Shown here piece by piece: positions 27,192-29,906 of a stretch of 64,000 nt of DNA. Location: contig VHBC01000006.1 of NCBI GenBank assembly GCA_016872115.1, positions 62,001 through 126,000 on the forward strand, given 5' to 3'. The notes beneath the pieces are model-generated. The model ran no database searches, was not told the DNA's origin, and saw nothing but the letters and a program-made list of their open reading frames with translations. Position numbers and translations under genes: made by a program. Numbering within the stretch: position 1 is the first letter of the stretch; each line of letters begins with the position of its first letter. This DNA comes from Sphingomonadales bacterium (GTDB lineage: Bacteria; Bacteroidota; Bacteroidia; Flavobacteriales_D; Crocinitomicaceae).

Positions 27192-28052
27192 TTAGTATTG
27201 GATTTGAAGGCCGCTCGATTGCTGCCACTTTTCACCGTTGACGACAGCTGTTACGAAATAAATATAGGCGCCACGGTTTAACTTATCGCCGCCTAAATCT
27301 TTTCCATCCCAGTTGAAGCGAGGATTGTTGTCTTTGTATACAATATTGTTTTTAGCATCTAATACCACGATACTAAAATCTTGAACATCTGCTTGTTGCC
27401 AATTTATTTGCAAGGTTTCGTTTTGATCATCACCGTTTGGCGTAAAGATGTTGGGTAGTGTAATACGCGGCTGATTTACTGCATTTGTTGCAGTCTGCAC
27501 CATCGTATGATAGGCCGGGCTTGTGTTTTGTGGAGCAGCTAAAGAACCTGACGCATTTGGTTTTGGGATGCCTGAGAGTTGAAAGCTCGGAGGCATAGAA
27601 GGAAGGATTTCTTGAATCGATGCTAAGACGGATTCAGGAATATGGGGTTGGTCTGAAATGGTATTTGAGCCTATTTGATTGTTATTTATTTCTTGATCAG
27701 CAAGTTGATGTTGGGCAGGATCAGTAGTAGTTATTGGAGCACCCAAAGTATTTTGAGGGGATATTTGAATGTCTGAAACGCGGTCGTTTTTAGGCGCGGG
27801 TGTCTTTTGCTGAACGGGTTGTTTTTCAGCTTTTGGAGTTGCTGAGGATTGAACAGCAAGGTAAATGGATACAACTACAATTGAACTTGCCGCAATACCA
27901 ATAAGCGTTTTAGACAAAATACTAAGGCCTGTTTTGGCTGTGCCGGCGCCCAACGAAAACGAAATAGAAGACCACAAAGCGGGGTCAACCGAGACTTGAT
28001 GGTCTTGGAGGCCTTTGGCAAAAAGATCTTTTATATTATCGTTATCTATCAT
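27192..28052 (-). CDS. Putative anti-sigma protein with CHU_C gliding-type C-terminal domain
   Basis: A 286-residue protein. Residues 1-45 are a cytoplasmic stretch (DLFAKGLQDHQVSVDPALWSSI) resembling the N-terminus of Bacteroidota proteins paired with ECF sigma factors. A single membrane helix follows (about 48-67, LIGIAASSIVVVSIYLAVQS), then a low-complexity Pro/Gln/Ser/Thr linker (about 70-195). The C-terminal 85 residues are a CHU_C domain: LPNIFTPNGDDQNE, then FSIVVLDAKNNIVY, WDGKDLGG and LNRGAYIYFV. That domain usually sends secreted proteins to T9SS as a type B sorting signal, but here there is no cleavable signal peptide. It ends one base from the sigma gene, so a sigma/anti-sigma pair is the natural reading. 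Confidence 0.75.
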   Translation of the reverse strand: MIDNDNIKDLFAKGLQDHQVSVDPALWSSISFSLGAGTAKTGLSILSKTLIGIAASSIVVVSIYLAVQSSATPKAEKQPVQQKTPAPKNDRVSDIQISPQNTLGAPITTTDPAQHQLADQEINNNQIGSNTISDQPHIPESVLASIQEILPSMPPSFQLSGIPKPNASGSLAAPQNTSPAYHTMVQTATNAVNQPRITLPNIFTPNGDDQNETLQINWQQADVQDFSIVVLDAKNNIVYKDNNPRFNWDGKDLGGDKLNRGAYIYFVTAVVNGEKWQQSSGLQIQY

Positions 28053-28580
28053 TTAATCTAAGTTTTCAATGCGGTCTTTCAAATATGCCCTTGCTCTAAG
28101 GTATTGTGTTTTAGATGTGCTTTCTGAAACGCCAAGCTGCGCGGCAATTTCTTGATGTGAGTAGCCTTCAATAGCAAATAAATTAAAAACGGTTCTGTAT
28201 CCGTCTGGAAGTGCTTGAATCAATTTTAGGAGGTCGTCAGCCATGAGTTTTTCTGCGTTAAAACTTTCAACTGAAAGTTTATGGCTGACGTCGTCGAGGG
28301 CTACATCGGTAAGCATTTTTTTGTCTTTACGCAGTTGGTCTAGGCAGGTATTTACAGCAATTTTTTTGAGCCAACCTTCAAAGGCACCTTCGGATTTGTA
28401 ATTGCTTATGTGTGCAAATATTTTGACAAAAGTATCTTGTAGGGTGTCTTGGGCACGCATTTGGTCTTTCATGTAACGCAAACACACGCCGTATAATTTG
28501 GGGGCATAGATGTCAAACAACGCTTTTTGAGCTTTTGGACGAGCAGCAATACAACCTAGTATGAGTTCTTGTTCCTCCAT
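28053..28580 (-). CDS. ECF-type RNA polymerase sigma factor
   Basis: A 175-residue sigma-70 family protein with only regions 2 and 4. Region 2 includes LYGVCLRYMKDQMRAQDTLQDTFVKIF and the region 2.4 stretch FEGWLKKIAVNTCLDQLRK. Region 4 is LPDGYRTVFNLFAIEGYSHQEIAAQLGVSESTSKTQYLRARAYL, a standard helix-turn-helix. It is immediately followed by the membrane protein that probably controls it. It may head a run of five genes reaching the LD-carboxypeptidase. No clear TAnnTTTG box is seen upstream, which may mean it is self-activated. Confidence 0.93.
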   Translation of the reverse strand: MEEQELILGCIAARPKAQKALFDIYAPKLYGVCLRYMKDQMRAQDTLQDTFVKIFAHISNYKSEGAFEGWLKKIAVNTCLDQLRKDKKMLTDVALDDVSHKLSVESFNAEKLMADDLLKLIQALPDGYRTVFNLFAIEGYSHQEIAAQLGVSESTSKTQYLRARAYLKDRIENLD

Positions 28581-28682
28581 TACTCCTCAGCCTAGACGTA
28601 AATTGATTTTAAAAAGTTGCATGCGTAAAGCAAGATAGTTTATTTCTTTTAATTTCGTATTTAAACACCCTTTCGAATCGAT

Positions 28683-29906
28683 ATGCGCTATCCCATTTTT
28701 CCATTGTTTGTGCTTTTGCTATCGCATTTGAATTTTGCACAAAACGCGCAAAACATACCATATATTGCTGAGATACAACTCAATGATCGTTTGCAAATAC
28801 AGGTAACGGCCGAGCTCCCAAGCAAAGATCCGAAAGCACCCATCACCATTTATAATGGAGAAGAAATCTATCAATTATCCGTAAAAAAACGGATAGGCGA
28901 CACCATTATTTATCAATTTCCGGCGCAAGATGCCGAATGGCGCCTGGCTTTTGATAAGGTATTTTCAGAAGCACGCGGCTGGTGGATCAACTACAATAAA
29001 AAAGCACCGGTACGCTATCCAATTCACCTGAATAAAGGAATCCTTGAAGCACCGGCTCCGGGCCCAGAATTCTTGAGCGTCGCTGGGCGTTGGCGGGTGG
29101 TATTCAACCCGGGAACTGAAAAGGAAGAGCTTATGGTAGGCGTATTTAAACAACAAATTGGCAATTTCGTCACGGGAAGTTTTTTGAGCGAAACTGGTGA
29201 CTACCGCTATTTACACGGCCATATTTCGGGAGACAAGCTTCATTTACAAACTTACACAGGTTATTGGGCATTTGTTGTCGATGCAACGCTACAAAATGCG
29301 GATCAAATGACGGGTAATTTTTACAGCGGCTCGAGTTACAATGCTCCCTTTTCGGCTGTCCGAGATGCTTCAGTACAATTGCGCGACGAAAGTAGTCTTA
29401 CTTATTTAATAAAGCGCGATGAGCCTGTTTTGTTGAAAGACCTCATCAAGATGAATGGCAAAAAAACGACCATCAATTTAGCAGCAAAAAATCAATTAAC
29501 CATCATTCAGATCATGGGAACGTGGTGCCCAAACTGCTTGGACGAGACCCAAATGCTATTGCAATTACAAAAGGATTACGGCGCAAAAGGCTTACAAGTA
29601 ATGGCACTTGCCTTTGAGGTAGGGAGCGATACAAAAAAACAAAGGGCTCGCTTGAAAAGCTGGATCAAAGCGATGGGGGTAAATTATCCTGTTTATCTAG
29701 CAGGCACATCGAGTAAAGATGTTGCCTCAGCTCGCTTTCCTATGCTCAATGGCATCATGAGTTTTCCGACCACCTTACTTGTTGATCAGCAGGGGAAAAT
29801 CATTGCCATTCATACCGGATTTAGCGGACCAGCAACAGGTCAAGCATATAACGATTTGGTAGAAAAATTCAAGCAAGAAATAGAGGGCAATTTACCTGCC
29901 CATTAA
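28683..29906 (+). CDS. Secreted TlpA-family thiol-disulfide protein with long N-terminal domain
   Basis: A 407-residue exported protein with a signal peptide ending near NFAQ. Residues 20-250 are a beta-rich domain (for example FLSVAGRWRVVF and GNFVTGSFLSETGDYRYLHG) of unknown role, seen in other TlpA-like proteins of the phylum. Residues 260-400 are an AhpC/TSA-TlpA thioredoxin fold with the redox pair Cys282/Cys285 in GTWCPNCLDETQ and the cis-Pro region FPTTLLVDQQG. It probably reduces or shuffles periplasmic disulfides. Its 3' end overlaps the convergent mreB by 15 bases. Confidence 0.85.
   Translation: MRYPIFPLFVLLLSHLNFAQNAQNIPYIAEIQLNDRLQIQVTAELPSKDPKAPITIYNGEEIYQLSVKKRIGDTIIYQFPAQDAEWRLAFDKVFSEARGWWINYNKKAPVRYPIHLNKGILEAPAPGPEFLSVAGRWRVVFNPGTEKEELMVGVFKQQIGNFVTGSFLSETGDYRYLHGHISGDKLHLQTYTGYWAFVVDATLQNADQMTGNFYSGSSYNAPFSAVRDASVQLRDESSLTYLIKRDEPVLLKDLIKMNGKKTTINLAAKNQLTIIQIMGTWCPNCLDETQMLLQLQKDYGAKGLQVMALAFEVGSDTKKQRARLKSWIKAMGVNYPVYLAGTSSKDVASARFPMLNGIMSFPTTLLVDQQGKIIAIHTGFSGPATGQAYNDLVEKFKQEIEGNLPAH

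What the first reader, a model, noticed from the sequence alone, without database searches (positions are those of the whole stretch)
27192..28580. ECF sigma factor paired with a membrane protein bearing a CHU_C domain
The gene beside the sigma factor encodes an anti-sigma-like N-terminus, one membrane helix, a low-complexity linker and a CHU_C domain. That domain normally marks type IX secreted or gliding proteins that are exported by a cleaved signal peptide. Here it would sit in the periplasm on an inner-membrane protein. It could act as a sensor that monitors T9SS substrates or machinery and reports to the sigma factor.
Basis: partly seen in the sequence, partly recalled or inferred. Interest (0 to 1): 0.5.

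Follow-up and report, generated by a model that had tools for sequence, protein, structure and literature searches.

The report
Sigma-factor sensor wearing a secretion tag
A bacterial gene switch is apparently held in check by a membrane protein that carries the same kind of tail as the surface proteins the switch seems to turn on, which suggests that the cell uses the tail to sense how its secretion system is doing.

Summary
Window 27192-28580 (-) holds an ECF sigma gene and, abutting it, a 286-aa protein: N-terminal module, one membrane helix, about 130 low-complexity residues, CHU_C domain (53.1 bits, cut-off 27). The partner gene occurs in 34 of 37 genus genomes, and 65 of the 80 nearest sigma relatives have a CHU_C partner, so the architecture is no oddity. 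New here: a conserved, probably autoregulatory promoter, GCA[AG]C-N18-[GA]TC[TA], in 101 of 107 sequences. The strict motif occurs 121 times in 37 genus genomes against 3 for the reversed control; 33 matches precede CHU_C genes or operons, 32 the sigma. The regulator thus carries a relative of the sorting domain of its predicted regulon. The plan resembles Dma anti-sigma factors of Bacteroides, with the outer-membrane barrel replaced by a T9SS type B-like domain. That domain lacks the RWG motif of 25 of 26 other CHU_C domains of the genome, so it may be a non-secreted look-alike. Sensing of the type B T9SS path is inferred, its direction unknown. Sigma contact was not resolved.

The parts
28053..28580 (-). 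ECF sigma factor gene, 175 aa
   Evidence: Sigma70_r2 and Sigma70_r4_2 over Pfam cut-offs; 21 genus relatives 51-90% identical
27192..28052 (-). membrane anti-sigma-like gene with C-terminal CHU_C, 286 aa
27918..28052 (-). residues 1-45: predicted sigma-binding module, two short helices
   Evidence: 53% mean identity of 27 relatives to the window; module also in 10 of 14 partners without CHU_C; helices 6-16, 24-35
27852..27908 (-). residues 49-67: single transmembrane helix
   Evidence: hydropathy 2.26; best 19-residue stretch 1.55-2.43 in all 28 sequences
27462..27851 (-). residues 68-197: low-complexity linker
   Evidence: 10% mean identity (residues 69-190) but length 118-157 residues in the 27 of 28 sequences measured
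27219..27461 (-). residues 198-278: CHU_C (T9SS type B sorting-like) domain
   Evidence: Pfam 53.1 bits; pLDDT 92-98; Foldseek matches incl. PorZ, PorU, FlgD, 8gl8 chain D
28594..28621 (-). predicted autoregulatory ECF promoter TGCAAC-N18-GTCT, 13 nt before the sigma ATG
   Evidence: 101 of 107 sequences (window included) keep GCA[AG]C-N18-[GA]TC[TA] upstream of the sigma gene; position

Best explanation
This is an autoregulated ECF sigma factor held by an inner-membrane anti-sigma factor built on the Dma plan (cytoplasmic sigma-binding module, one membrane helix, long disordered tether, C-terminal envelope domain), in which the envelope domain is a T9SS type B-like CHU_C domain. The sigma drives its own operon and a small set of secreted CHU_C (type B) surface proteins. 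The tethered CHU_C domain most likely competes with, or is handled by, the same outer-membrane apparatus (SprF/PorP-like shuttle or SprA translocon) as those proteins, so that the state of the type B export path changes the anti-sigma and releases or holds the sigma. Shown by sequence: pair, architecture, conserved promoter, CHU_C enrichment of motif-bearing genes in the genus. Inferred: sigma binding, topology, that this sigma reads the motif, engagement of the T9SS, the release step (regulated proteolysis by analogy) and its direction.
For: Domains. Partner gene in 34 of 37 genus genomes (my count; some cut by contig ends). Promoter with spacing exactly 18 in 101 of 107 sequences when 14-20 was allowed. 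Genus scan 121 matches vs 3 control; 33 before CHU_C genes/operons, 32 before the sigma. Own genome: of 20 relaxed matches 6 lie between genes with an ATG 14-29 nt downstream, 0 of 25 control matches do; of the 5 besides the sigma, 4 lead to CHU_C genes. Those 4 rank 1, 5, 6, 8 of 26 own CHU_C domains by similarity to the anti-sigma CHU_C (one-sided Mann-Whitney p 0.009; ranks 2-4 are not targets). Outside the genus, of 19 sites fetched 5 precede sigma genes and 4 precede CHU_C genes or operons, a fifth starting a cut homologue of a target family. N-module in 10 of 14 partners without CHU_C. T9SS present: SprA, 7 PorP_SprF.
Against: The anti-sigma CHU_C lacks the RWG motif, and the window protein scores below TIGR04131's cut-off, so the T9SS may not recognise it. 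AlphaFold2 of the read-through fusion gave no confident sigma contact. Net charge is nearly equal on both sides of the helix (mean +1.1 in 15 residues before, +0.9 after), so topology rests on context. Assignment of the motif to this sigma is not exclusive: a second ECF of the genome has a CHU_C-like anti-sigma and a similar GCAAC element, and another has TGTAAC-N16-CGTC upstream (L302, by eye). In the own genome the relaxed motif is no commoner than its reverse (20 vs 25), only better placed. At order level the strict motif is less clean: 26 matches vs 12 in the control, in 14 of 40 genomes, and 9 of the 19 fetched sites fit neither class nor homologue. In the genus 12 matches precede a LuxR-type regulator, 23 lie in noncoding arrays and 12 inside genes.
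Confidence: 0.5

Rival explanations
1. The CHU_C domain is only a handy Ig-like periplasmic domain (ligand, peptidoglycan or partner binding, or dimerisation). The sigma is an envelope or surface-adhesion regulator whose targets happen to be CHU_C adhesins, with no sensing of the T9SS.
For: No RWG motif and a weak TIGR04131 score; the best Foldseek hits are Ig-like parts of streptococcal C5a peptidases, with FlgD also found; 14 of 80 related sigma genes have partners without CHU_C, at least 7 of 10 scanned being barrels.
Against: A CHU_C domain in 65 of 80 nearest sigma relatives, CHU_C enrichment in the predicted regulon and similarity to the regulon's own CHU_C domains would be coincidence.
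Confidence: 0.3
2. The anti-sigma truly spans both membranes: the CHU_C domain is threaded through the T9SS to the surface while the N-terminus stays in the cytoplasm, making a surface receptor.
For: Same plan as Dma factors, described as having domains from the outer membrane into the cytosol (PMC13088901, first part and passages read); 118-157-residue tether.
Against: Each of five CTD motifs was needed for secretion of SprB's type B domain (PMC12618676, passages read) and the anti-sigma domains lack RWG, likely one of them (inference; the motif letters are in a figure I could not see); I know of no tethered T9SS substrate (recall).
Confidence: 0.12
3. The gene encodes an ordinary secreted CHU_C protein with an unusual long signal peptide, only neighbouring the sigma gene.
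For: CHU_C domain and a hydrophobic stretch.
Against: Conserved 45-residue N-terminus, no common cleavage pattern seen, abutment and conserved pairing, module also in partners without CHU_C.
Confidence: 0.03

Closest known systems
[quoted passage not shown] PMC13088901, first part and passages read; the 2024 PNAS paper is not held)
   Same: ECF sigma gene beside an anti-sigma with N-terminal sigma-binding domain, one transmembrane helix, long disordered tether and a C-terminal outer-envelope domain; relatives of this sigma in other Bacteroidota have barrel-type partners with a related N-module
   Different: C-terminal domain is CHU_C, not a beta-barrel; predicted regulon is CHU_C surface proteins, whereas Dma1/Dma2 mutants show hypervesiculation and Dma2 affects polysaccharide-utilisation loci
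PorA-PorXY-SigP of Porphyromonas gingivalis (PMC7712824, abstract and part 1 of the discussion read)
   Same: a protein with a T9SS C-terminal domain feeds into an ECF sigma that concerns the T9SS; sigma is autoregulated
   Different: PorA is a surface protein acting through a two-component system; targets are T9SS component genes; the CTD is not on an anti-sigma
SM6 promoters and ECF/anti-sigma pair THC0290_1774/1773 of Flavobacterium psychrophilum (PMC9723704, section 15 part 1 and passages read)
   Different: targets listed include machinery (gldN, porU); whether that anti-sigma has CHU_C was not tested here
Type B CTD substrates and PorP/SprF shuttles (PMC12618676 and PMC9143113, passages read)
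   Same: CHU_C/type B-like C-terminal domain; the genome has SprA and 7 PorP_SprF proteins
   Different: no cleavable signal peptide seen, membrane anchored, no RWG motif

Membership tests
ECF sigma factor (group IV sigma-70) | regions 2 and 4 | tested here: met
   Sigma70_r2 62.0 bits and Sigma70_r4_2 60.7 bits over cut-offs; TIGR02937 94.4 bits, cut-off 42.9
ECF21 group | assignment to the ECF21 model | not testable with these tools
   no ECF classification models on hand; only similarity to sigma genes with barrel-type partners
membrane-bound anti-sigma factor | N-terminal module before one transmembrane helix, encoded beside the sigma gene | tested here: met
   sequence features only:
membrane-bound anti-sigma factor | physical binding and inhibition of the sigma | tested here: inconclusive
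   read-through fusion model, pLDDT about 31-53 per block in the module, no confident contact
Dma family | N-terminal anti-sigma domain, transmembrane helix, disordered tether | tested here: met
   same order of parts; N-module related to that of barrel-type partners; no Dma protein itself was compared
Dma family | C-terminal outer-membrane beta-barrel | tested here: not met
   CHU_C in its place; barrel matches (PF13568, 6 over and 1 below the cut-off) in 7 of 10 scanned relatives without CHU_C
T9SS type B substrate | type B C-terminal domain | tested here: inconclusive
   Pfam CHU_C over cut-off; TIGR04131 31.2 bits, under its cut-off 35; 49 of 50 family members match TIGR04131 at E<=0.001
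T9SS type B substrate | RWG motif seen in the genome's other CHU_C domains | tested here: not met
   25 of 26 own domains have R[WYF]G, 1 of 28 anti-sigmas by the same pattern, there at the W-G site instead; 0 of 28 with [NDS]R[WYF]G; 2 of 65 in the wider set
T9SS type B substrate | cleavable Sec signal peptide | tested here: not met
   by inspection and hydropathy only; no signal-peptide predictor was available
FecR-type anti-sigma | FecR domain | tested here: not met
   no FecR match among the Pfam and NCBIfam families listed at E<=1

The most novel reading that the evidence does not exclude
The anti-sigma is a captive T9SS look-alike substrate: its tethered CHU_C domain docks on the outer-membrane type B shuttle or translocon and so reports free secretion capacity or blockage to the sigma that makes the same class of cargo, a supply-and-demand loop for a secretion system.
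Probability: 0.35. Interest if true: 0.85.

Novelty: new variant of a known kind. Interest (0 to 1): 0.62.

Why it matters
How Bacteroidota match the supply of T9SS cargo to the state of the secretion machine is, as far as I know, open. Here a regulator carries a relative of the tag found on the cargo it appears to control, in a conserved two-gene unit. That makes a feedback model directly testable, extends the Dma idea (anti-sigma factors reaching to the outer membrane) towards T9SS bacteria, and gives a promoter motif with which type B cargo regulons can be read from sequence, at least within this genus.

Tried and rejected
T9SS machinery as regulon: no machinery gene recognised among the promoter-placed own-genome hits; judged by reading the proteins, and only exact pattern matches were seen, so degenerate sites could be missed. 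C12:55875 CHU_C as a target: first counted in, then dropped because its motif lies about 170 nt before the likely start and overlaps another reading frame. Fusion model of sigma and anti-sigma: a first alignment with separate anti-sigma rows looked misaligned and was not used; the second gave no confident contact. RNA model: arrays not found in the own genome. PorP_SprF linkage: none of the 7 lies on the contigs of the four targets, but only 3 of 26 CHU_C genes have one directly beside them, so this says little.

Rows dropped or limits. One search listed 30 loci; 28 full-length anti-sigmas were aligned (L048 and L056 partial). The N-module profile was built from sequences of which 49 are among the 80 scanned, so only the 14 partners without CHU_C (10 positive) are a test. 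In some searches one profile seed (L009) was read in the wrong frame; rebuilt without it, the matched sets of the three files re-run were unchanged. let an identical 28-mer from another genome stand in for some hits and had no locus for one; one search used genome-specific loci and a stricter intragenic rule (two hits with CHU_C downstream, G008:C14 and G029:C341, then count as intragenic). Orthologous hits are not independent, so the binomial P printed is not used. The base rate of 27 CHU_C in roughly 2,000 genes uses an assumed gene number. One search looked 220 nt before the first ATG; for L305 that ATG lies inside the gene, so its promoter was not tested.

Full report
What is there. Window 28053-28580 (-) encodes a 175-aa ECF sigma factor and 27192-28052 (-) a 286-aa protein whose ATG follows the sigma stop directly. 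The second protein has a CHU_C domain at residues 198-278 (53.1 bits, cut-off 27), only sub-threshold to TIGR04131 (31.2 vs 35). AlphaFold2 gives residues 201-286 pLDDT 92-98 and no structure in the middle. Foldseek's best hits are Ig-like parts of streptococcal C5a peptidases (E 6.5e-5 and up), followed by PorZ (8.0e-4), FlgD (2.8e-3), chain D of the SprA-PorV-RemZ complex 8gl8 (3.0e-3) and PorU (7.4e-3). By sequence profile the best solved relative is the grappling hook protein of Aureispira (E 3.1e-9, residues 198-268). The genome carries SprA and 7 PorP_SprF proteins, and 27 CHU_C domains with this one.

Conservation. In the genus (family Crocinitomicaceae by several record titles) the partner gene is found in 34 of 37 genomes, counted, some copies cut by contig ends; the three without are 68-83% complete. 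Among 28 full-length partners, the 27 others average 53% identity to the window in residues 1-45, 10% in the linker and 50% in the CHU_C region; linker length is 118-157 in the 27 measured. Neighbours (YegS-like kinase, IspD, divergent redoxin protein) are kept in near relatives. Of the 80 best sigma relatives in named genomes (a capped list), 65 have a CHU_C partner, 14 another partner and 1 no readable gene. The N-module profile, built without them, finds 10 of the 14 partners lacking CHU_C at E<1e-3 (E for 100 sequences). All 50 members of alignment A3 match Pfam CHU_C, but A3 was drawn mostly from loci where CHU_C was evident. Seven of ten scanned partners without CHU_C match outer-membrane barrels, six over the cut-off.

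Promoter. Upstream of the sigma gene lies TGCAACTTTTTAAAATCAATTTACGTCT (28594-28621, minus), 13 nt before the ATG. With 14-20 bases allowed between the boxes, 101 of 107 sequences had exactly 18 between GCA[AG]C and [GA]TC[TA]. This is strong evidence for autoregulation. Of 11 sigma-70 region 2 genes of the genome, two look like primary sigmas and nine like ECF (my reading); none of the other eight showed GCA[AG]C-N16-20-[GA]TC in the 220 nt searched. Yet L302 has TGTAAC-N16-CGTC upstream (by eye) and the second CHU_C-like pair a GCAAC element with GTTA at a shorter spacing (by eye), so cross-recognition is possible.

Regulon. TGCAACYTT-N15-GTCW over 37 genomes: 121 matches, 3 for the reversed pattern. 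Each match was placed on a locus of its own genome: 32 before the sigma gene, 33 before CHU_C genes or operons (CHU_C in a frame beginning within 1500 nt downstream on the same strand), 12 before an orthologous LuxR-type regulator, 12 inside genes, 8 before other coding genes, 14 classed as array units, and 10 unclassified, of which 9 are further array units and 1 is at a contig end. Of the 8 others one is a cut copy of a CHU_C target, one has a type A T9SS domain, three are a 357-aa lipoprotein-like family, and three are further secreted-looking proteins, one of them cut. Orthologues repeat, so these are not independent events; still, CHU_C genes are about 1% of genes (27 in roughly 2,000, assumed). 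In the own genome the strict-type pattern GCAACNTT-N15-GTCW gave 9 matches vs 3. The relaxed pattern GCAAC-N17-CGTC gave 20 and its reverse 25: not commoner, but better placed. Six of 20, and 0 of 25, lie between genes with an ATG 14-29 nt downstream: the sigma, an outer-membrane-protein-like gene (by eye), and four CHU_C genes or operons (C6:58208, C7:51346, C8:85326, C11:26725). At order level the strict motif is noisier: 26 matches vs 12 in the control, 14 of 40 genomes. Of the 21 matches outside the genus 19 were fetched: 5 precede sigma genes, 4 CHU_C genes or operons, 1 starts a cut homologue of a target family, 9 are neither; the two not fetched there sit upstream of sigma genes in L311 and L313 (positions).

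The tag. Scored with a profile of the anti-sigma CHU_C domains, the four targets rank 1, 5, 6 and 8 of 26 own CHU_C domains, ranks 2-4 being non-targets (one-sided Mann-Whitney p 0.009). The anti-sigma domains lack the RWG motif that 25 of 26 own domains have. Type B secretion of SprB's domain needs five motifs (PMC12618676, passages read); their letters are in a figure I could not see, so equating RWG with one of them is inference. The simplest reading is a look-alike that may be bound but not exported.

Mechanism. By analogy with Dma factors (PMC13088901: N-terminal anti-sigma domain, transmembrane helix, disordered tether, C-terminal barrel), the tether lets the CHU_C domain reach the outer membrane. 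Type B domains are bound by PorP/SprF-like barrels (PMC9143113, PMC12618676, passages read). I propose that CHU_C monitors this path. Direction and release step are open. The fused structure prediction did not resolve a contact, and hydropathy and charge do not prove topology.

Known or new. Searches of the held library for CHU_C with anti-sigma and ECF, type IX secretion with ECF and anti-sigma, gliding with anti-sigma, Bacteroidetes and ECF and T9SS with anti-sigma and sorting domain listed no paper whose title or abstract start describes this architecture; of the papers listed I looked into PMC9723704, PMC7712824 and one passage of PMC12045153. Most subscription papers are not held. I class it as a new variant of the Dma-like kind, not a Dma member, since the barrel is absent.

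Noticed in passing
L229-L234, L255 (genus genomes G017, G019, G026, G027, G031, G033): Tandem arrays of short units, each the same ECF-type promoter, a short stretch and an intrinsic terminator, with no reading frame; a model built from 20 of them finds 30 units in 6 of 37 genomes, none in the window's genome; no Rfam match in the four array loci scanned. They look like sigma-dependent small RNAs.
   Followed up: partly
L209 3257-4031 and L210-L220: LuxR-type 214-aa regulator with the motif about 105 nt upstream and a similar leader, in 12 genus genomes including the window's own.
   Followed up: partly
L310 1483-3125 (G000:C2): A second ECF plus membrane anti-sigma of 357 aa with a weak CHU_C-like end (E 3e-9 with the local profile, no Pfam match at 0.01) in the same genome.
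   Followed up: partly
L147 1153-3992; L274: Small secreted-looking proteins (124 and 133 aa) stand first in the operons of two CHU_C targets; function unknown.
   Followed up: no
28683-29906 +: Divergent redoxin/thioredoxin-like secreted-looking protein, kept beside the sigma in most of the relatives examined.
   Followed up: no
L058, L067, L073: Public MAG titles (Chryseobacterium gleum, Chitinophaga pinensis) seem not to fit: these contigs carry the same unit as the Crocinitomicaceae genomes, and L058's contig has the length and place of G020:C6.
   Followed up: no
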